A program made the translations under genes and the position numbers. Below the pieces are notes generated by a model. That model was not told where the DNA came from and did not search any database. It was given only the letters and a program-made list of their open reading frames with translations. This document shows positions 5,565 to 13,837 of a DNA stretch of 35,951 nt, in pieces. This DNA is from Solirubrobacterales bacterium (lineage in GTDB: Bacteria > Actinomycetota > Thermoleophilia > Solirubrobacterales > Solirubrobacteraceae), in NCBI GenBank assembly GCA_019244395.1, contig JAFASQ010000526.1:1-35951 (forward strand), given 5' to 3'. Every line of letters starts with the position of its first letter. The first letter of the stretch is position 1.

Positions 5565-5637
5565 ACGATGCCGGAGTCGCCGCCCGTGCGCTGGATCGGC
5601 GGCACCCGGCTGAACGCGCCGGTCGGCGTCCGCGTGG

Positions 5638-5804
5638 GAGGGCTGTCGCTGGAGAAGCAACTTCGAAGGTGGCGCGCGAGAACGTGTCGTGGGTCGCCGA
5701 TCAGGCCCGCGCTCAGGGCGCGAGCATCATGATCGAGGCCCGTCAACTCGTACGAGAACGGACCCTACCTGCTCGACACGACGGCTAAGGCGGTAGGTGA
5801 CTGA
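5638..5804 (+). pseudogene. Relic of a hydroxypyruvate isomerase-like (Hyi/TIM-barrel) gene, frameshifted
   Basis: On the plus strand a short stretch reads ARENVSWVADQARAQGASI followed by MIEA. After one extra base near 5737 it continues in the next frame as NSYENGPYLLDTTAKAVGD, then TGA at 5802-5804. This is the characteristic middle of hydroxypyruvate isomerase-like sugar isomerases: the N/AADRA..GA helix, the metal-ligand IEA strand and the ENGPYLL..T..A loop. Only about 50 codons remain, both ends are missing and the frame is broken, so this is a decayed fragment. Its neighbours, a 2-hydroxyacid dehydrogenase and an HpcH aldolase, belong to the same hydroxypyruvate/tartronate-semialdehyde chemistry. 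That suggests a once larger pathway cluster. Confidence 0.65.
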
Positions 5805-5826
5805 AGGGCGGATCAGGGCAGCGGAT

Positions 5827-6837
5827 CTAGCGGAGCGAGTCCCACGCCGGCGGGTTCAGGCAGCTCGCCGGGAGCCTTCCGGCGAGCAGTTCGCGCAGGT
5901 TGGCCAGCACCGCCTCGGCGGTGCGGCGTAGGCCCAGGTCGGTGAAGGACGAGATGTGCCCGCTCACGATCGTGTTCGGTGCCGTGAGGATCGGATCGTC
6001 GGGCGGTACCGGCTCGCGCTCGAACACGTCAAGCCCGGCCGCGGCGATCTGGCCGCTCTCGAGCGCCGCGACGAGCGCGGGCTGATCGATCAGCTCGCCC
6101 CGCGCAGTGTTGACGACGACGGCGTGGCGCGGAAGGAGTTGGAATTCTCGTGCCCCGATGAGATGCCGCGAGGTGGCACTCAACGGAGCGTGGAGGGTGA
6201 GGACGTCCGCACGCGGGAGCATCGCGTCAAGGGCGGTCAGCTCGACGTCGTACTGCGCGCAGAACTCGCGGTCCGGGCGGGGTTCGAGCGCCAGCACCGG
6301 GCAGCCGAAGGCGCGAACTCGCCGGGTCACCGCCCGGCCGACCGCCCCCAGGCCGACCACTCCGACCGTGGCGCCCGCCAGGTCCCGCGTCGGCACCGCC
6401 GCGCGCCATTCACCGGTCCGCACCGCATCGTCCAGTCGTGGCAGCCGGCGGATGCACGCGAGCATCAGCGCAAGCGCCATGTCCGCCACTGCCTCGGCAT
6501 TGACGGCGGGCGTGGTCACCACCGCCACCCCGGCCTCGGTCGCTGCGGCGATGTCGATCGCGTCCGACCCCGTTCCCCAGCGCAGGATCGCCCTCAGCGA
6601 CGGGGCGCCCGCGAACACCGCCCGCGAATATGGCTCGCTGCCCGCGACGGTCGCCCAGGCACCATCCAGGCCGCCGGCCAGAACCTCGTCGCTCGGCGCG
6701 TGCGCCAGCTCGTAGCACGCGGTTACCGTGATGCCCGGCACCTGCTCGAGCTCCGGGCGAGCCAGCTCGGCACTCTCGGTCGTGAGGACCAGCCGGCGGG
6801 CCGCGCTCAGAGCCAGTCCTCGACGGTGATCGACCAA
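5827..6837 (-). CDS. D-isomer-specific 2-hydroxyacid dehydrogenase (phosphoglycerate dehydrogenase-like)
   Basis: This 336-aa NAD(P)-dependent oxidoreductase interconverts 2-oxo acids and D-2-hydroxy acids. The catalytic domain spans about 15-115 and 300-336, and the nucleotide-binding domain about 120-295. The Rossmann loop is GLGAVG (162-167). The family triad is present: Arg246 (NTARGEL), Glu275 (FEREPVPP) and His294 (SGHISS). There is no ACT domain, so it is more like a hydroxypyruvate/glyoxylate reductase than the serine-pathway SerA. The start is a TTG at 6837, inside the last codons of the upstream kinase gene (31-bp overlap), which implies translational coupling. No ATG or GTG lies closer to the conserved core. 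It is the last gene of the six-gene minus-strand run, and the substrate is unknown. Confidence 0.88.
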   Translation of the reverse strand: MVDHRRGLALSAARRLVLTTESAELARPELEQVPGITVTACYELAHAPSDEVLAGGLDGAWATVAGSEPYSRAVFAGAPSLRAILRWGTGSDAIDIAAATEAGVAVVTTPAVNAEAVADMALALMLACIRRLPRLDDAVRTGEWRAAVPTRDLAGATVGVVGLGAVGRAVTRRVRAFGCPVLALEPRPDREFCAQYDVELTALDAMLPRADVLTLHAPLSATSRHLIGAREFQLLPRHAVVVNTARGELIDQPALVAALESGQIAAAGLDVFEREPVPPDDPILTAPNTIVSGHISSFTDLGLRRTAEAVLANLRELLAGRLPASCLNPPAWDSLR

Positions 6838-8534
6838 TGAGCGTTATCCAACCCCGGCTGGATCTGGATCTGGTAAACGCCGGGCCCGCTCTTGAACACG
6901 TGAGTCTGGCCGCTGCCGTCGTTCAGGCTGAACGACGCGTTGCTCAGCCCCGTCACCTGGGCGCTGGGCCCGTTGCAGAAGAGGACGAAGTTACACGTCC
7001 CGTCGTAGGACATCTGGTAGACGATCCGCCACTGCGTCCCGCGGATCTGGAACGGCGCGGACTGCCCGCCCCCGTCTCCGGAGACCGACGTGATGGTCTG
7101 CCAGCTCGGAGTCTCCGCGGCGAGCAGGGTGACGGTGGAGTGCGGCTTGAGGTGGTGTCCTGCGCCTGGTGTCTGACCGGTGACCGTGCCGGCGGCCTTG
7201 CCGGGGGCCTGAACGTACTGGACCGTGACGCCTAGCTGGAGGTGGTGCAGACGGGCCACGGCCGCGCTCGAGCTCTCGCCGCTGAGCTGCGGCACCTCGA
7301 CCGGGCGTGGGCCCTTGCTCATCGCTACGTCGATCGTCGTCCCCTCCTTGACGCGCGCGCCGGCGACCGGCGTCTGGTCCACCGCGGTGCCCGGCTTTGC
7401 CCGATCGTCATAGCGCTGGCTAAACGCGACGTCGAGGTGCAGGTGGTGGAGCTTCGCGGTGACCATTCTCGAGCTCAGGCCGTGGAGCGGTGGCAGGGGC
7501 ACCGTCGGGCGCGCGGTCAGCGTGGCCGCGGCGAGGCCAAGCGCCCCGAGCACGACCAGCGCGAATGCGAACACGGCGATCGTTCGCCGGCGGGCCGCCG
7601 GGTTGACGTCGCGCCGTGGTGAGTAGGCCGGGGAGACCCAGGTCGGGTCGGCGCCGGCATCCGTCTCTCGCCGGGTGGCGTTCGCTCCATCCGTTCGCCG
7701 CGTCGCTGCTCCTGCCTGGGCGCGCGCGAGATCATCGGCCATCGCGGCTGAGCTCTGGTAGCGGTCGCCCGGCTCTTTGGCCAGGGCGTGGTGCACGATC
7801 CGCTCGAGCGAGCGCGGCGTGCCCGGCGGCAGCGGCGGGGGCGACTCCTGCACGTGCCGGAGCGCGATCTCGACCGCGGTGTCGCCGTTGAACGGCGGAT
7901 ACCCGGCGAGCATCTCGTAGAGCACGATGCCGGCGCTGTAGACGTCGGTGGCCGGGGTTACGGGAAGGCCGCTGGCCTGCTCTGGCGCCATGTAACGTGG
8001 CGTGCCGACGATCGTGGCCGTCCCACCCTCGGTGGTGCCCTCGGCCAGCCGCGCGATCCCCAGGTCGCCCACCTTGACTCTGCCCCGCGTGGAGATGAGC
8101 ACGTTGGCGGGCTTGATGTCTCGATGCACGATCTGCTCGCTGTGGGCGCGCTCCAGCGCCCGGCACAGCTGCTCGGCGATGTCACACGCATCCCACGGGG
8201 CAAGCCGGCCGCCCCGGCTCAGCCGCTTGGCCAGGCTCTCGCCGTCGACCAGCTCGGTGACGTAATAGAGCCCCTCAGCGGCCTGGCCGATGTCGTAGAT
8301 CTGCACGATCCCGGGATCGCTGACTCGCGCCAGGAGCTGAGCCTCGCGCCCGAAGCTCTCGGCCCAGTCCGGGTCCTCGGCCCACCATGGCTTGATCACC
8401 TTGATCGCCACCTCGCGCGCCAGGCGCCGGTCGTAGCTGCGATACACGCGCCCGAACGTCCCCTCGCCGATCAGCTCGTGCAGCTCGTAGCGCCCGTCGA
8501 GCGCGCAGCCGGCCAAGTCGGGTGCGTGCGGCAT
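6807..8534 (-). CDS. Transmembrane Ser/Thr protein kinase with two PASTA repeats and an extra C-terminal domain
   Basis: The product is 575 aa. The Hanks-type kinase domain (about 16-275) has the glycine loop IGEGTFGRV, Lys45 in VAIKVIK, HRDIKPAN (catalytic Asp139), DLG in place of DFG (Asp157), GTPRYMAPEQA and DVYSAGIVLYEML. A charged linker leads to one membrane helix (about 318-340). Two PASTA repeats follow (about 345-407 and 411-473) and should lie outside the membrane, where PASTA domains of PknB-type kinases sense muropeptides or lipid II (known of the family). The last 100 residues form a beta-rich domain with a Cys pair (TCNFVLFC), not a third PASTA. ATG 8534 has a GGAGG overlapping the end of the upstream aldolase gene (5 bp between genes). 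It is odd to find such a kinase inside a metabolic operon rather than near fts or pbp genes. Confidence 0.92.
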   Translation of the reverse strand: MPHAPDLAGCALDGRYELHELIGEGTFGRVYRSYDRRLAREVAIKVIKPWWAEDPDWAESFGREAQLLARVSDPGIVQIYDIGQAAEGLYYVTELVDGESLAKRLSRGGRLAPWDACDIAEQLCRALERAHSEQIVHRDIKPANVLISTRGRVKVGDLGIARLAEGTTEGGTATIVGTPRYMAPEQASGLPVTPATDVYSAGIVLYEMLAGYPPFNGDTAVEIALRHVQESPPPLPPGTPRSLERIVHHALAKEPGDRYQSSAAMADDLARAQAGAATRRTDGANATRRETDAGADPTWVSPAYSPRRDVNPAARRRTIAVFAFALVVLGALGLAAATLTARPTVPLPPLHGLSSRMVTAKLHHLHLDVAFSQRYDDRAKPGTAVDQTPVAGARVKEGTTIDVAMSKGPRPVEVPQLSGESSSAAVARLHHLQLGVTVQYVQAPGKAAGTVTGQTPGAGHHLKPHSTVTLLAAETPSWQTITSVSGDGGGQSAPFQIRGTQWRIVYQMSYDGTCNFVLFCNGPSAQVTGLSNASFSLNDGSGQTHVFKSGPGVYQIQIQPGLDNAHWSITVEDWL

Positions 8535-8539
8535 CGCCC

Positions 8540-9331
8540 TCAGCCTCCGCGAGCCGCGGCGAGTTCGCGGTTGACGGTGGACCTGAACATGCTGCTGTCG
8601 ACGCCGACCGTGATCAGCCGGAACCCTTCGTCGGCGTAATGCTTGGCCACAGCACCGCCGGCGCAGTGCATCCCGGAGATGAGGGAGTGGGCCTCGCAGG
8701 CGATCCGCACGCGCTCGATCGCGTCCGCGAGCGGCTTTCGATCCTCGGCGGGATCTGTCTGGACGGCCCGCGGGGGTAGGCCGAGCGCGATCGACAGATC
8801 GGAAGGTCCGACGTAGAGCCCGTCGAGACCGGGGGTGGCTGCGATCTCCTCCAGGTTGTCCAGCCCGTCACGCGTCTCGATCATGGCGAAGCACAGCGCG
8901 TCGTGCTCGAGATCTTCGGGCGTGGCCGAGCCCACGACGAGTTCGGCGCGGATCGGTCCGTATGAACGCCGACCGCGTGGCGGATAGCGACACGCCTCGA
9001 CCGCGCGCGCGGCCTCGCCGGCGTTGTCGATGAGCGGCAGGATTACCCCGGCGGCGCCCAGGTCGAGCGCTCGCATGATCAGCCAGGGCTCGTTCCAGGC
9101 CAGCCGCGCCAGCGGCACGGCGCCACCGACCTCAGCGGCCTCGAACATCGAGACCATCGTCGCCTCGGTGCCGAGCCCGTGCTGGAGGTCGACGCACACG
9201 TAGTCGTAGCCGGCACGCGCGGCGAGCTCGGCCGTGATTGAGGTTGGGATCCCCGCCCAGAGCCCGAAGGCGGGCTCGCCCGCCTCCCACTTCCCGCGCA
9301 GCCGCTGGCCCGCCGAGGTCGTCGTCCCCAT
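8540..9331 (-). CDS. HpcH/HpaI family aldolase (class II, pyruvate-type)
   Basis: This 263-aa enzyme belongs to the divalent-metal aldolases that cleave or form 4-hydroxy-2-oxo acids (HpaI, GarL, RhmA). Visible features are the catalytic-base motif VDLQHG with His51, the strand DLGAAGVILPLI, the metal-ligand glutamate in MIETRDG (Glu152) and aspartate in GLYVGPSDLS (Asp178), and the conserved GVDSSMF near the end. The length is normal for the family. It starts at ATG 9331 without an obvious ribosome-binding site, 30 bp after the asparaginase gene. GarL-type members make tartronate semialdehyde plus pyruvate, which would feed a 2-hydroxyacid dehydrogenase such as the one two genes downstream; that link is inference. 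Confidence 0.9.
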   Translation of the reverse strand: MGTTTSAGQRLRGKWEAGEPAFGLWAGIPTSITAELAARAGYDYVCVDLQHGLGTEATMVSMFEAAEVGGAVPLARLAWNEPWLIMRALDLGAAGVILPLIDNAGEAARAVEACRYPPRGRRSYGPIRAELVVGSATPEDLEHDALCFAMIETRDGLDNLEEIAATPGLDGLYVGPSDLSIALGLPPRAVQTDPAEDRKPLADAIERVRIACEAHSLISGMHCAGGAVAKHYADEGFRLITVGVDSSMFRSTVNRELAAARGG

Positions 9332-9361
9332 GGCGGCAATGGTATGCGAACTGCCCGCGAA

Positions 9362-10243
9362 TTACGGCATCTCGACCGCCGGCGGTCGCCCAGGCCGCCA
9401 CTCCCCCCTCGGCATCGCCTCGGTCGAGAACATCGTGATGGCCTCACCAGCCGCGTCCACGGCGATCAATCCGCCGACGCCGTCGCAGGCAGCGACCTCG
9501 TCCATCGCGGCGGTTGCCGCGGCATCGAGGGCGACACCCTGAGCGACCAGCGCGCCGAGCAGCCGGCCCGCGCCGGCCCGGATGAATGCCTCGCCGGCCC
9601 CGGTGCACGAAACCGCCACGTACCGGTCGGCCCAGGTCCCGGCGCCGATCAGCGGCGAATCGCCCACCCGCCCGGGGCGCTGCCCCAGCCGGCCGCCCGT
9701 CGAGGTGGCTGCGGCGAGCCGCCCGCTCCTGTCGAGGCACACCGCGCCGACCGTGCCGCGGTCTGGCTGTTCCCGGTGGCTCAGCCATCGCTCGAGGCGC
9801 CGGCGCTGGCGCTCGGTCACGAACTCGGACGGATCGTGCTGCTCGAGCCCGTGGGTGGCGGCGTGGGCGTCGGCGCGCTCGCCGGCGAGCAGGACCGGCG
9901 GCGCGTCGAGCAGCGTGCGGGCGGCCGCGATCGGATGCCGGGTGCGGCGCATCATCGCCATCGCCCCCGCCGCGCGGTCACTGCCCCGCATGACCGCCGC
10001 GCTCATCTCCACCGACCCGTCCGAGCAGAGCACCGAGCCGTAGCCGGCGTTGAACAGGCTGAAGCCCTCCATGACCATGACCGCGGCGCACGCGGCCTCG
10101 ACGGCGTCGCCGCCGTGCTCGAGCGCGTCGGCTCCCGCGGTCAGCGCCGCTTCGAGCGTCGAGCGGCACTCGGGCTCCCGGTCGCGCAGATCATCGCTCA
10201 GGCCGCCGGCGCCGGCGTGCACCACGATCACCGGCGAGTTCAT
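9362..10243 (-). CDS. Isoaspartyl peptidase / L-asparaginase (Ntn hydrolase, type 2)
   Basis: This 293-aa precursor starts at ATG 10243. Its ATG overlaps the TGA of the upstream DUF3037 gene (ATGA), so translation is coupled. Members self-cleave before a threonine that becomes the N-terminal nucleophile of the beta chain, and hydrolyse isoaspartyl dipeptides or asparagine. The expected cleavage is Gly163/Thr164 in DRGTVGAVCLD. Other family blocks are VVHAGAGG (7-14), the NAGYGSVL(C) segment (65-73), STGG (181-184) and GRVGDSPLIGAGTWAD (191-206), which holds the substrate-binding Arg192. The alpha chain is about 163 residues and the beta chain about 130, as usual. A role in repairing or degrading isoaspartyl peptides is likely. 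Why it sits with a HipA-like kinase and an aldolase is not known. Confidence 0.9.
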   Translation of the reverse strand: MNSPVIVVHAGAGGLSDDLRDREPECRSTLEAALTAGADALEHGGDAVEAACAAVMVMEGFSLFNAGYGSVLCSDGSVEMSAAVMRGSDRAAGAMAMMRRTRHPIAAARTLLDAPPVLLAGERADAHAATHGLEQHDPSEFVTERQRRRLERWLSHREQPDRGTVGAVCLDRSGRLAAATSTGGRLGQRPGRVGDSPLIGAGTWADRYVAVSCTGAGEAFIRAGAGRLLGALVAQGVALDAAATAAMDEVAACDGVGGLIAVDAAGEAITMFSTEAMPRGEWRPGRPPAVEMP

Positions 10244-10656
10244 CGGGTGGCTCCGTCGTTCCGAATCGGCTCCACCAGTTCCGCGAACAGTGCAGCGAGA
10301 GTTGCCTCCGGGTCGTCCGAGAGGCCGGTGTGGACCTCCGAGGGCTGGATGATCGTGCTCGAGGGGGCCACCAGCCAGCCGAACCGCTCGGACTGGGGCA
10401 TCCTGGCGATGGGCCCGCATTCGGGATCACCCTCGGCCACGCGCACGAGCGCGTCCAGTTGAGCCCGGACCTCGTCGACCGGGCTGTCGGGCGCGAGCGC
10501 GTTCAGGCGACGCTCGTCGAGATCGACCTTGGCGCCGAGAAAGGCGCGCTGGCGGCAGTAGAGCACCACCCCGGCATTGAACCGTTCGCCGCGCTCGACG
10601 CGCGGCACCACGCGCAGGATCGCGTAGGAGAACGGGCTAGGAATTGATTCGGACAC
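10240..10656 (-). CDS. DUF3037 family protein
   Basis: This 138-aa protein starts at GTG 10656 and overlaps the 3' end of the upstream HipA-like gene by 20 bp. The N-terminal block FSYAILRVVPRVERGERFNA followed by GVVLYC is diagnostic of DUF3037, a family of unknown function commonly encoded next to HipA-like kinase-domain proteins. A second conserved region is the FLGAKVDLDERRLNAL strand-helix, and the C-terminal half carries FGWLVAPSSTIIQPS. No membrane segment or signal peptide is visible, so it should be cytoplasmic. The gene pairing suggests that it works with, or is a substrate or regulator of, the kinase-fold protein. The function remains unknown. Confidence 0.85.
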   Translation of the reverse strand: MSESIPSPFSYAILRVVPRVERGERFNAGVVLYCRQRAFLGAKVDLDERRLNALAPDSPVDEVRAQLDALVRVAEGDPECGPIARMPQSERFGWLVAPSSTIIQPSEVHTGLSDDPEATLAALFAELVEPIRNDGATR

Positions 10657-11404
10657 GCTCGGCTTCGCCGGCGAACGCCCCGCTGCGCGCCCGCCGGTTC
10701 AGGTAATCGACGTATACGTCCGGATCCTGGCCGGCAAACCAGTCGGCCGGCACCAGGTTCGCAACTTCCTCGAGGACCGACTGATCGACCGTCGGTGCCA
10801 GCCGCGCGTGAGCGTCGAGGATCGAGCCGGCGCGGCCGAGCAGCACGTGGTGGCCGATCAGCGGGAACGGCCGGTCCGCGTCCTCGGCCGGGTTGAGCCC
10901 CGCGTGGTGGAGATAGAGGGCTGCACCGTGATCGATCAGCCACATCCGGTCGTGCCAGATCAGCAGGTTGGGATTGCGCGGCGTGCGGTCGACGTTGGTG
11001 GTGAGCGCGTCGAGCCATACGATGTCGGCGGCCAAGCGCTCGTCGGGCGCGAACGGACCGCCGGGCGTGTAAGGGAGCGAGCCCGGGAGGAAGTCGACGC
11101 CCAGGTTCGAGCCGGCGCTGCCGGTGATCAGGTCCTGGATCTCTGGATCGGGCTCGGCGGCACCAAGAACCGGATCGAGTCCGAGTTCAACCAACTCCGG
11201 AACCAGCAGGCCGAGACGCCGCGCCAATTCGCCAACGATCACCTCGGCCACCAGCGCTCGCAGCCCCTGGCCCGCGCCGCGGAACTTGAGCACGTACAGC
11301 CCGTCGTCGTCGGCCTCGACGAGGCCGGGCAGCGAACCTCCCTCGCGCAGGGGGGTGACGTAGCGAATCGCCGCGACGGACCGCAGGGCGGTGGAGATCG
11401 ACAT
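10637..11404 (-). CDS. HipA-like kinase-fold protein (DUF3037-associated)
   Basis: The 255-aa product resembles the catalytic half of HipA/PI4K-like kinases. An ATP-contacting lysine is suggested by LYVLKFRGAG (Lys40), followed by a helix with Glu54. The catalytic loop is DALTTNVDRTPRNPNLL, where Asp139 and Asn144 fit the HipA NxDxHxxN pattern with Arg replacing His. The metal-binding Asp158 lies in WLIDHGAALYLHH. At 255 aa it is much shorter than HipA (about 440) and lacks the N-terminal subdomain, and there is no HipB-like DNA-binding antitoxin gene nearby. It overlaps the DUF3037 gene by 20 bp. It starts at ATG 11404 without a ribosome-binding site, 23 bp after a tandem repeat that ends the previous gene. 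Whether it phosphorylates a protein, tRNA-related factor or small molecule is unknown. Confidence 0.78.
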   Translation of the reverse strand: MSISTALRSVAAIRYVTPLREGGSLPGLVEADDDGLYVLKFRGAGQGLRALVAEVIVGELARRLGLLVPELVELGLDPVLGAAEPDPEIQDLITGSAGSNLGVDFLPGSLPYTPGGPFAPDERLAADIVWLDALTTNVDRTPRNPNLLIWHDRMWLIDHGAALYLHHAGLNPAEDADRPFPLIGHHVLLGRAGSILDAHARLAPTVDQSVLEEVANLVPADWFAGQDPDVYVDYLNRRARSGAFAGEAERVRINS

Positions 11405-11427
11405 CCCGCGGAAGGTACGGGTTTTGG

Positions 11428-11505
11428 GGCGTCAGGCGGTGGCGGCGCGCTCGGGCGTCAGGCGGTCGCGGCGCTCTCGGGCGTCAGGCGGTCGCGGCGT
11501 AGGCG
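11428..11505. repeat. Three tandem copies of a 26-bp repeat that includes a stop codon
   Basis: Copies lie at 11428-11453, 11454-11479 and 11480-11505. All share GGCGTCAGGCGGT, and the second and third are identical over their first 20 bases, GGCGTCAGGCGGTCGCGGCG. The third copy carries the TGA stop of the serine hydrolase gene (11484-11486, minus strand), so the end of that gene has been copied twice downstream. The repeats lie in the 79-bp gap before the HipA-like gene. Confidence 0.85.
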
Positions 11506-12626
11506 GCGGCCTGGATGTCGCGGTGCACCAGGGGCAGCTCGGGACTCTCCCAGAGCCGCTGCGTGAGCACGATCACGGTGAGGTCGCGAATGGGATCGAC
11601 CCGCCACGAGCTGCCGAAACCGCCGTCCCAGCCGAAGGCGCCGGTGTCGTACACCGCCTGGCAGAAGCCCCAGGACATCGTGGCGAAGAAGTTCGGTCCG
11701 AGCCCGCCGCGCTCCTTCTGGGCCTCGGTGAGCTGATCGGTGGTCATGGCGCGGACGGAGCCCGGCGACAGCACGGGGCGGCCACCGCGGAGCAGCATCC
11801 GCGCGAACGCCAGCAGATCGTCGACGGTCGAAACCAACCCGCCCGCGCCGTCGCCGAACGCCGGCGCTCGGCTCCAGCGCCCGTCCGGCTCGTCCCACAC
11901 CTTCAGACCGTTTCCGGTCGGGACGTACGCCGTGGCGAGCCGGTCGGTGTGTGAGGTCCAGAAGGCCGTGTCGCGCATGCCGAGCGGGTCGAAGATCCGA
12001 GTGCGAAGCACCTCGGCAAACGGCTTGTTCGCGGCACGCGCCACCAGCACCCCGAGCACTGACGCGCCGGTGTTGTAGAGCCAGCGCTCGCCGGGCTGCG
12101 CGATCAGCGGGAGGGTCCCTAGTCTGGCGATCCACGTATCGGGATCGGGTTGCACGGCCGGATCCGGCTCCCCCAGCGTGGCCAGGCCGAACTCGCGTGT
12201 CGCCTCCCGCACCGGCCACGGCGTGGGCGACATGAACATTTCGGTCGCCATCCCGAAGCCGAACGTGAACGTGAGCAGGTCGCGGATGGTTATCGCTCGA
12301 TTCGCCGGAACAGTCTCGGTCAGAGCTCCGTCCGGACGGACGAGCACCCGCCGTCCGCCCATCTCCGGGAGCAGCCGGTCGATCGGGTCGTCAAGCCCGA
12401 TCAGGCCCTCGTCGACGAGCGCCATCGTCGCCGCGGCGGTGATCGGCTTGGTGGTGGAGGCGATCCGGAACAGCGAATCGCGCTTCACCGGGGGGCGAGC
12501 GACGCCGAGCTTGCCGAGGGTCTCAACGTGCACGTCATCGCCATGTGCCACCAGCGCCACCACGCCCGGCACGCGCTCGTCGCCGACGTGGGGCTCGACC
12601 GCCGCACGGAGCTGATCGAGGCTCAC
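11484..12626 (-). CDS. Serine hydrolase of the class C beta-lactamase / penicillin-binding-protein-like family
   Basis: From GTG 12626 the protein is 380 aa. The GTG overlaps the TGA of the upstream aldo-keto reductase gene (GTGA), which decides the start; longer upstream frames are shadows of that gene. Motif 1 is STTK with Ser57 and Lys60, motif 2 is YNT (Tyr184-Asn-Thr), and the third motif (KTG or HxG in relatives) is WDGGFGSSW near residue 349. Blocks [24 protein letters not shown] and [16 protein letters not shown] are typical of EstB-like esterases and D-aminopeptidase relatives. No signal peptide is visible, so a cytoplasmic esterase is more likely than a resistance enzyme. Three copies of a 26-bp repeat begin at its stop. 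Confidence 0.88.
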
Positions 12627-13615
12627 AGGTTGACGGCAGCCATTCCTGCCTCGTCGTACCGGTCTCCTGCCACCGGCGGCAGCTCGGCCTCGATCCGCCG
12701 CAGGTCTTCGTCGGTTAGGTGGACGTCGGCTGCGGCGGCGTTCTGCTCGAGGTACGTGCGCCGCTTGGTGCCGGGGATCGGAACGATGTCCTGTCCCTGG
12801 GCCAGAACCCAGGCCAGCGCCAGCTGCGCGGGGGTGACGCCCTTCTCCCCGGCGATCTCCGCGACCTTGGCTGCCAGCTTCAGGTTGGCATTCAGGTTCT
12901 CCCCGGTGAAGCGGGGCCCGTGACGGCGAAAGTCGTTCTCGTCGAGCTCGCCGGGCGACGTGAAGCGGCCGGACAGGAAGCCGCGACCGAGGGGCGAGTA
13001 GGCCACGAAGGCGATGCCCAACTCCCGGCACGTGTTGAGTACCCCGTTTTGTTCGGGATCGCGCGTCCAAAGCGAGTACTCGGTCTGCACCGCGGTGATC
13101 GGGTGAACCGCAGAGGCTCGGCGAATCGTCTCGGGTGCCGCCTCGCTCAGCCCGATATGGTGCACCTTGCCCTGCTCGACGAGCTCCGCCATGGCTCCCA
13201 CGGTCTCCTCGATCGGGACCTTTGGGTCAACTCGGTGCTGGTAGTAGAGGTCGACGTAATCGGTGCCCAGGCGCTCGAGCGAGCCGTTGATCGAGCTTCG
13301 GACGTGCTCGGCAGAGCCGTCGAGCGGACCGACCGTCGGCATCTCGCCCGGCGTCGCGTTGTCCATGCGCCGGGCGAACTTGGTCGCGATCACGTACTCC
13401 TCGCGCCGGCCCTTGACCGCGCGGCCAACCAGCTCCTCGTTGGTCAGCGGCCCGTACAGCTGAGCGGTGTCGAGGAAGTTGATCCCCAACTCGAGCGCGC
13501 GGTGGATGGTGGCGATCGCCTCCTGCTCGTCGGCCGAGCCATAGAAGGCCGACATTCCCATGCACCCGAGCCCGAGCGCGGAGACCTCGAGCGAACCGAG
13601 CCTGCGCTTCTCCAT
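12623..13615 (-). CDS. Aldo-keto reductase (AKR13/YajO-like)
   Basis: This 330-aa NADPH-dependent TIM-barrel oxidoreductase reduces aldehydes or ketones. It begins [20 protein letters not shown] at ATG 13615, five bases after GGAG. The catalytic tetrad is Asp49 and Tyr54 (FLDTAQLYG), Lys79 (VIATKF) and His127 (YYQHRVDP). Cofactor-binding segments include [18 protein letters not shown] and the late [13 protein letters not shown] loop. All are in the expected order and the length is standard. An upstream ATG-containing extension to 13717 exists but reads through a near-perfect dyad and lacks homology. It is probably the promoter-proximal gene of the run that continues into the serine hydrolase through a GTGA overlap. 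The 31-bp dyad upstream suggests control by a regulator encoded elsewhere. Confidence 0.92.
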
Positions 13616-13639
13616 GTCTGCTCCAATCTGTTCGTGCGG

Positions 13640-13670
13640 GGCCATCACTTCACCATAGAAGGTGATGGCC
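13640..13670 (-). promoter_or_regulatory. 31-bp near-perfect dyad upstream of the aldo-keto reductase (operator candidate)
   Basis: GGCCATCAC (13640-13648) and GTGATGGCC (13662-13670) are perfect inverted copies. Inside them TTC (13649-13651) faces GAA (13658-13660), with one extra G. The element ends 24 bp before the ATG of the aldo-keto reductase. It is more symmetrical than expected by chance and well placed for a repressor site or a 5'-UTR hairpin. Confidence 0.5.
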
Positions 13671-13764
13671 GGCGCGCCGTCGGCCGCCATGGGCGCCCGC
13701 GACGCGCCGGCTGGCAAGGTGCTTAACGCACAAAAGCTCCCCCACCCCTACCCACCTCGGGGAG

Positions 13765-13787
13765 ATAAGCATCGGGTAGGCGCTTAT
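13765..13787. promoter_or_regulatory. Small dyad ATAAGC-N11-GCTTAT
   Basis: ATAAGC (13765-13770) and GCTTAT (13782-13787) form a perfect 6-bp inverted repeat with an 11-bp spacer in an AT-richer patch, 150 bp upstream of the aldo-keto reductase gene. It is a possible protein-binding site, but could be chance. Confidence 0.25.
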
Positions 13788-13837
13788 GTGCCGGAAGTCC
13801 GCTGCACCCAGGGGGCTTTTCGACGTTTTGCACCATG

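What the first reader, a model, noticed from the sequence alone, without database searches (positions are those of the whole stretch)
5827..11404. Six-gene operon combining a HipA-like kinase, DUF3037, isoaspartyl peptidase, aldolase, PASTA kinase and hydroxyacid dehydrogenase
Seen: six minus-strand genes with junctions of 20-bp overlap, ATGA overlap, 30-bp gap, 5-bp gap and 31-bp overlap. Known: HipA-like kinase domains and DUF3037 often neighbour each other, but their role is undescribed to my knowledge; PASTA kinases normally sit with cell-wall genes. Inference: a signalling or metabolite-control module in which a short HipA-like protein (no N-subdomain, no HipB) and DUF3037 act with amino-acid and 2-oxo-acid enzymes, perhaps linked to isoaspartate repair or cell-wall status. 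This is the best candidate here for an undescribed system.
Basis: partly seen in the sequence, partly recalled or inferred. Interest (0 to 1): 0.72.

Follow-up and report, generated by a model that had tools for sequence, protein, structure and literature searches.

The report
Resident HipA-like kinase and DUF3037 pair
The six neighbouring genes are real, but only the first two, a small kinase and its partner, belong together in other bacteria; they look like a chromosome-resident relative of a recently described phage-defence toxin-antitoxin pair, and the other four genes joined them in one small group of related bacteria.

Summary
The six minus-strand genes exist at the stated coordinates with the stated junctions. 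They are not a conserved six-gene system. The HipA_2 kinase and DUF3037 genes lie together in 80 of 80 named loci kept from a capped search over several phyla. The other four accompany them in 4 of the 16 same-genus genomes with a DUF3037 hit. The pair is not undescribed: PADLOC lists it as candidate PDC-M66, and relatives (DS-6/HipAD, Retron-Sda1) defend E. coli against phage in print, the kinase behaving as toxin, DUF3037 as antitoxin. Less known is the kind of pair. The window's DUF3037 is short (138 aa, no C-terminal extension), unlike the long form that also occurs in the same family. In my searches the short form had no phage or viral-contig relative, was rare on plasmids, followed phylum in a kinase tree, and occurred once each in 116 of 121 genomes of one actinobacterial genus (probably Streptomyces), syntenic in 12 of 12 loci read. 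A leaderless-type promoter box precedes the kinase in 40 of 79 loci, the window included. I read it as a resident, kinase-active, toxin-antitoxin-like unit that one Solirubrobacterales lineage has coupled to metabolic genes and a PASTA kinase. Untested at the bench.

The parts
10637..11404 (-). HipA_2-type kinase, 255 aa; K40, D139, N144, N146, D158 invariant in 66 of 66 aligned sequences
   Evidence: Pfam HipA_2 and PADLOC PDC-M66A; alignment A4; AlphaFold2 model pLDDT 95.3, best PDB matches are kinases
10240..10656 (-). short DUF3037 protein, 138 aa (GTG start), presumed partner/antitoxin; overlaps the kinase gene by 20 nt
   Evidence: Pfam DUF3037; PADLOC PDC-M66B at model positions 4-131 of 281; model pLDDT 93.6; no PDB fold match at E<=0.001
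11412..11417 (-). candidate leaderless-type -10 box TACCTT, 7 nt before the kinase ATG
   Evidence: same in L054 and L060; TANNNT consensus in PMC3160421 (passages)
9362..10243 (-). isoaspartyl peptidase/asparaginase type 2, 293 aa; ATGA overlap with DUF3037; lineage-specific companion
8540..9331 (-). HpcH/HpaI-family aldolase, 263 aa; lineage-specific companion
6807..8534 (-). Ser/Thr kinase with two PASTA domains, 575 aa; lineage-specific companion
5827..6837 (-). D-2-hydroxyacid dehydrogenase, up to 336 aa (start uncertain); lineage-specific companion
11484..12626 (-). beta-lactamase-fold serine hydrolase upstream of the pair, also beside it in L054 and L060
12623..13690 (-). aldo/keto reductase, overlaps the serine hydrolase gene by 4 nt (starts as called); also in L054

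Best explanation
The functional unit is the two-gene pair at 10240-11404. The first gene makes a small, active HipA-like (HipA_2) protein kinase without the HipA N-subdomain; the second, translated from an overlapping frame, makes a short DUF3037 protein that binds the kinase and holds it in check. When the partner is lost or titrated (phage infection or another stress) the kinase phosphorylates a cellular target, most likely in translation, and stops growth. Shown here: gene anatomy, invariant kinase-motif residues, purifying selection, constant pairing in the loci examined, usually with overlapping frames. Shown in print for relatives only: the kinase is needed for phage defence, loss of DUF3037 is toxic. 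Inferred: that the short form works the same way, its target, its trigger. The window's pair belongs to a short, chromosome-resident group and not to the long form found in the same family, so a standing house role (growth or translation control) beside or instead of phage defence is likely. In one Solirubrobacterales lineage the pair reads into a peptidase, an aldolase, a PASTA kinase and a dehydrogenase, which are companions, not parts of the system.
For: Pairing: 80 of 80 named loci; 59 of 60 family loci, the sixtieth being a long-type pair; 4 of 4 fetched later; 27 of 27 phylum loci L205-L231. Called frames overlap in 47 of 50 family loci. Motif residues 66 of 66. Fold: CtkA E 5.6e-6, Fam20, PI3K-like kinases. 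PADLOC: kinase matches PDC-M66A over residues 6-236, E 6e-22. Print: kinase deletion abolishes defence of the Retron-Sda1 operon against Bas51 and DUF3037 deletion is toxic (PMC12548924, passages); a catalytic mutation in DS-6A abolishes defence, and DS-6A/DS-6B are predicted to bind (PMC13092281, passages). Residence: 116 of 121 genomes of genus g78, one copy each; synteny in 12 of 12 loci read; kinase tree follows phylum, 12 changes, least possible 8, shuffled mean 39.4; kinase in 0 of 50,697 phage records and 5 of 72,556 plasmid records; no confirmed relative in three viral-contig scans with short-form alignments, two paired loci in one scan with the long form.
Against: No short-form pair has been tested at the bench; toxicity, neutralisation and defence are carried over from relatives whose DUF3037 proteins are reported with a C-terminal part that is absent here, and whose sequences I could not compare directly. 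The short-form kinases tested match PADLOC's PDC-M66A, while the three long-form family kinases tested do not: on the kinase side the window is nearer to the catalogued defence candidate than the long form is, which blurs a simple split into resident short and defensive long pairs. A viral-contig kinase (L260) scores 50 bits with the short-form and 46 with the long-form profile, in between. One long-form DUF3037 protein found nothing in phage or plasmid records either, so only viral contigs show a contrast, 2 against 0. DUF3037 is in 72 of 146 genomes of the window's family, patchy for a house role. DUF3037 matched no solved fold, and no canonical HipA is among the 50 fold matches shown for the kinase. 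The steady block junctions leave room for a real link to the four companions in this lineage.
Confidence: 0.6

Rival explanations
1. A six- or eight-gene signalling and metabolite-control module, in which the kinase/DUF3037 pair and the PASTA kinase act with the peptidase, aldolase and dehydrogenase.
For: Same order with the -20 and -4 overlaps in 4 of 4 block genomes although the peptidases have diverged to 68% identity, and dN/dS 0.12-0.35 for the genes compared. A PASTA kinase also lies next to the pair, on the other strand, in G063.
Against: None of the four near the pair in 56 of 59 short-type family loci, and almost none in 80 named loci. Peptidase and aldolase stand apart from the pair in L112 (G059) and in L113 (G072, which has no DUF3037 hit). 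The PASTA kinase is one of three contigs with PASTA matches in this genome.
Confidence: 0.12
2. An ordinary anti-phage toxin-antitoxin system (HipAD/PDC-M66 proper) that sits in this operon by chance.
For: PADLOC matches both proteins and the kinase better than it matches the family's long-form kinases; relatives defend against phage; patchy in the family.
Against: The short DUF3037 matches only positions 4-131 of 281 of PDC-M66B. Synteny, single copy, a tree by phylum and near absence from phage and plasmid records do not look mobile.
Confidence: 0.18
3. A resident regulatory kinase with an adaptor rather than a toxin with an antitoxin: DUF3037 directs or activates the kinase in normal growth.
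For: One copy in 116 of 121 g78 genomes; R15, R22, E24, N27, R91 and H109 invariant in 69 of 69 DUF3037 sequences, perhaps more than a mere clamp needs.
Against: In the one relative tested by deletion, removing DUF3037 was toxic (PMC12548924), which fits an inhibitor.
Confidence: 0.1

Closest known systems
PDC-M66 (PADLOC phage defence candidate)
   Same: HipA-like kinase plus DUF3037 side by side; both window proteins match its models
   Different: the M66B model has 281 positions and the window protein matches 4-131; the window pair is of a chromosome-resident kind
DS-6 / HipAD (PMC13092281, passages; Brenes and Laub 2025 seen only as a reference)
   Same: HipA-related kinase with a DUF3037 partner, no HipB
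   Different: DS-6B also carries DUF1829 and is predicted to bind DNA; the window partner is 138 aa with DUF3037 only
HipA-DUF3037 pair of Retron-Sda1, Sphingobacterium daejeonense (PMC12548924, passages)
   Same: same two domains; kinase needed for defence, DUF3037 neutralises it
   Different: its DUF3037 has a C-terminal region like a retron DNA-binding protein and sits with a retron
HipBST (HipT/HipS/HipB; PMC8262856, passages)
   Same: kinase core without N-subdomain-1 and a separate small neutraliser
   Different: partner is DUF3037, for which no similarity to HipS was detected, and there is no HipB gene beside it

Membership tests
HipA-DUF3037 pairs (PDC-M66 / DS-6 / HipAD) | HipA-like kinase gene | tested here: met
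   Pfam HipA_2 44.5 bits, cut-off 27; PDC-M66A 6e-22
HipA-DUF3037 pairs (PDC-M66 / DS-6 / HipAD) | DUF3037 partner gene directly beside it | tested here: met
   20-nt overlap in the window; 80 of 80 named loci
HipA-DUF3037 pairs (PDC-M66 / DS-6 / HipAD) | kinase motifs intact | tested here: met
   K40, D139, N144, N146, D158 in 66 of 66; the roles of these residues are recalled from HipA
HipA-DUF3037 pairs (PDC-M66 / DS-6 / HipAD) | DUF3037 protein with a C-terminal second part (DUF1829 or DNA-binding) | tested here: not met
   138 aa, Pfam DUF3037 only, residues 11-128; PDC-M66B matched at 4-131 of 281
HipA-DUF3037 pairs (PDC-M66 / DS-6 / HipAD) | carriage on phage or other mobile elements | tested here: not met
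   kinase: 0 of 50,697 phage records, 5 of 72,556 plasmid records; no confirmed viral contig; syntenic in g78. Whether carriage defines the family is my reading
HipA-DUF3037 pairs (PDC-M66 / DS-6 / HipAD) | kinase toxic alone, partner neutralises, phage defence | not testable with these tools
   needs bench work; reported for relatives
HipBA | HipB (HTH) antitoxin and a HipA kinase with N-subdomain-1 | tested here: not met
   partner is DUF3037; the HipA_2 match begins at residue 18 of a 255-aa protein; the model's first strand begins at residue 9
HipBST | HipS-type antitoxin (N-subdomain-1 fold) | tested here: inconclusive
   DUF3037 model has no PDB match at E<=0.001; Foldseek can miss distant folds
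PASTA kinase of the PknB type (gene 6807-8534) | Pkinase plus PASTA domains | tested here: met
   (PknB_PASTA_kin 413 bits, below its cut-off of 450)

The most novel reading that the evidence does not exclude
The short HipA_2-DUF3037 pair is an old, mostly vertically inherited chromosomal kinase-inhibitor module, found from Actinomycetota and Chloroflexota to Bacteroidota, Pseudomonadota, Myxococcota and Cyanobacteriota and nearly universal in Streptomyces, that controls growth or translation in normal life; the phage-defence pairs (HipAD, DS-6, Sda1) are its mobile offshoot or sister, made mobile and self-regulating by a longer DUF3037 protein. In one Solirubrobacterales lineage its leaderless promoter now also drives an amino-acid/2-oxo-acid gene set and a PASTA kinase. 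(Lowered from 0.40 on rechecking: the short kinases match PDC-M66A while the family's long-form kinases do not.)
Probability: 0.35. Interest if true: 0.6.

Novelty: new variant of a known kind. Interest (0 to 1): 0.42.

Why it matters
HipA-DUF3037 is catalogued as an anti-phage candidate. If many chromosomal copies belong to a short, resident group, annotating them all as defence would mislead, and a kinase found in 116 of 121 genomes of a large actinobacterial genus would lack a known role. Because the pair is single-copy and syntenic there, its function is directly testable in laboratory strains.

Tried and rejected
Six-gene system: rejected as a general unit; the companions are beside the pair in 4 of 16 same-genus genomes with a DUF3037 hit. 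Isoaspartate repair: no support seen; no repair methyltransferase was searched for. Cell-wall signalling: PASTA matches lie on three contigs of this genome (C435 four, C21 two, C188 one), so nothing singles this kinase out; it also matches many generic kinase models of PADLOC. A sigma-70 consensus scan of 5600-13800 found no promoter; the TANNNT test was used instead. Its control is weak: many control genes lie inside operons and related loci are not independent, so 40 of 79 against 151 of 697 (Fisher p 1.3e-7) overstates the contrast. 82 loci were given and 79 had the kinase motif; one of the 79 (L114) is cut before the start. My first gene caller was poor on high-GC DNA and was replaced; in the genus comparison a simple longest-ORF caller read Stenotrophomonas and Luteimonas badly, and I drew nothing from those. 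PDB sequence searches gave nothing useful. Long-form DUF3037 (one protein) found nothing in plasmids or phages. Two plasmid records were looked at: the pair lies among sugar-degrading or polyketide-type genes, no defence island seen. Print: DUF3037 (3 papers; passages of two read, the third seen in the listing), PDC-M66 (1), HipA_2 (15, 10 listed), HipAD (13; by listing only the DefensePredictor paper fits), HipA with defence terms (30, 15 listed), HipA-like kinase with Streptomyces (0), HipA with CtkA or atypical kinase (4, 3 listed), HipA family kinase (1): no description of a short resident group seen. Only open-licence papers are held; most listed papers were not opened.
Full report
Observation. 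The kinase is HipA_2, the next gene DUF3037, then an isoaspartyl-peptidase-type Asparaginase_2, an HpcH/HpaI aldolase, a kinase with two PASTA domains and a 2-hydroxyacid dehydrogenase. The dehydrogenase start is unsure (TTG at 6837 or GTG at 6741). The block does not stop at six: a serine hydrolase and an aldo/keto reductase lie directly upstream on the same strand and accompany the block in L054, the hydrolase also in L060.

Where the genome belongs. Two same-family contigs match records titled Solirubrobacteraceae in the same way (L124 like G140:C56, L125 like G120:C86).

Is the six-gene block conserved? DUF3037 is found in 72 of 146 genomes of the family, at 76 places. I fetched 60 of these with flanks of up to 8 kb. 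In 59 of 60 the short kinase and DUF3037 are adjacent; the sixtieth (L091) is a long-type pair. Of these 59, L054 has all four companions, L060 has three up to its contig end, L047 has only the PASTA kinase, on the other strand, and 56 have none in the flanks, which were short on some contigs. Four more short-type places were fetched later: L114 (G068) carries the block up to its contig ends, L115, L120 and L121 carry the pair alone. Three further places are long-type (L202-L204). Besides the window's own place, 8 of the 76 were not fetched, 5 of them fragments. With the window, the block is in 4 of 28 genomes of the genus, or 4 of 16 with a DUF3037 hit. In the genus the peptidase has hits in 11 of 28 genomes and the aldolase in 12 of 28, several of them weak; 7 and 8 of these are away from the pair. 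In L112 and L113 each stands without the other and without the pair. Within the block the -20 and -4 overlaps are the same in 4 of 4 and dN/dS is 0.12-0.35, so the genes are probably co-expressed in this lineage.

Is the pair conserved? In 80 of 80 the kinase is followed at once by DUF3037, most with overlapping frames. L197 has a peptidase of the same family upstream, L181 and L200 a distant dehydrogenase hit, seven loci a distant aldo/keto reductase; none has the block. In a draw of 396 genomes over the phylum, 62 have DUF3037; 63 of 64 matches score 108-157 bits, the other 60. The 27 loci newly given (L205-L231) all carry the kinase too. Of 48 family loci with a called gene after DUF3037, 17 have it on the other strand, so there the pair ends its own transcript.

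Two kinds of pair. Four family loci (L091, L202, L203, L204) hold a long DUF3037 protein (about 280-310 aa). Their proteins score 16-28 bits, or nothing, against short-form profiles, where short forms score about 271-432 (kinase) and 121-202 (DUF3037). Profile alignment shows that they are still related (E 2.9e-14 and 2.8e-11). Read by eye, the genes around L202-L204 include transposase-like and plasmid-like proteins; I did not scan them against families. One viral-contig scan with the long form returned two loci, each with a kinase beside a long DUF3037; the kinase of one (L260) scores 50 bits with the short-form and 46 with the long-form profile, so it lies in between. Three scans with short-form alignments confirmed none of 45, 18 and 33 pattern matches. 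The short kinase has no match in 50,697 phage records and matches in 5 of 72,556 plasmid records; short DUF3037 matches 6 of 72,556; one long DUF3037 matched neither collection. PADLOC's PDC-M66A recognises the short kinases tested (window 6e-22, L122 4e-23, L155 6e-25) but none of three long-form family kinases. The division into a resident short and a mobile long form is therefore supported within the family, but where DS-6 and Sda1 fall was not tested.

Residence. In 12 of 12 g78 loci read, the same genes follow the pair, among them one under a stretch that matches an annotated uracil-DNA glycosylase. Smaller sets show the same within genera: Flavobacterium 4 of 5, Pedobacter 3 of 5, Mucilaginibacter 3 of 5, Hymenobacter 2 of 3. 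On a tree of 83 kinases the phylum labels of 64 rows need 12 changes, least possible 8, shuffled mean 39.4 (19 rows without label not counted); it is a quick tree from best-scoring hits with two long branches. Against residence: two same-genus kinases (L129, L133) group away from the window's, and the pair is patchy in the family.

Promoter. A TANNNT box 4-9 nt before an in-frame start precedes the kinase in 40 of 79 loci, against 151 of 697 other genes. In the window it is TACCTT, 7 nt before the ATG, the same as in L054 and L060; in g78 it is present in 10 of 12. PMC3160421 (passages) gives TANNNT at about 12 bp before the start as the mark of leaderless genes; here the first T is 13 bp before it. 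Control and independence are weak.

Structure. The DUF3037 model (pLDDT 93.6) matched no solved structure at E<=0.001, so it gives no sign of HipB or HipS. The kinase model (95.3) matched CtkA, Fam20 and PI3K-like kinases; no canonical HipA is among the 50 matches shown. K40, D139, N144, N146 and D158 are invariant in 66 of 66, and R15, R22, E24, N27, R91 and H109 of DUF3037 in 69 of 69. The roles of the kinase residues are recalled from HipA.

Known work. PADLOC matches the pair as PDC-M66A/B. PMC12548924 (passages) reports that in the Retron-Sda1 operon of Sphingobacterium daejeonense the kinase is needed for defence against Bas51, the retron parts are not, and deletion of DUF3037 is toxic. 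PMC13092281 (passages and part of the reference list) reports DS-6, renamed HipAD, with a catalytic mutant that loses defence; the HipAD paper itself (Brenes and Laub 2025) I saw only as a reference. PMC8262856 (passages) describes small HipA-family kinases without the N-subdomain; DUF3037 does not occur in its main text.

Reading. The pair is a kinase with its checking partner, known in kind. The short, resident group to which it belongs I did not find described in the searches listed under Tried and rejected. The companions in this window are a lineage-specific addition.

Noticed in passing
L070 7977-8993: In family genome G019 DUF3037 is read in one frame with a pyridoxamine-phosphate-oxidase-like protein (Pfam PNPOx_N and PNP_phzG_C); a fusion, or two genes run together in the assembly.
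   Followed up: no
window about 11426-11495: Near-tandem repeat of about 26 bp spanning the end of the serine hydrolase gene and the gap before the kinase (read by eye).
   Followed up: no
L197 5052-5924: A peptidase 43% identical to the window's isoaspartyl peptidase lies directly upstream of the kinase in a Lysobacterales genome, the only such case among 80 named loci.
   Followed up: partly
L127 6720-7583: A DUF3037 with a high short-form score in a Chloroflexi genome carries a tail of about 159 aa without a Pfam match; perhaps a bridge to the long form.
   Followed up: partly
L047 4478-7993: In G063 the PASTA kinase lies beside the pair but on the opposite strand, so that neighbourhood may predate the block.
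   Followed up: partly
L260 2756-4819: A viral-contig kinase beside a long DUF3037 that scores about equally with the short-form and long-form kinase profiles, an intermediate.
   Followed up: no
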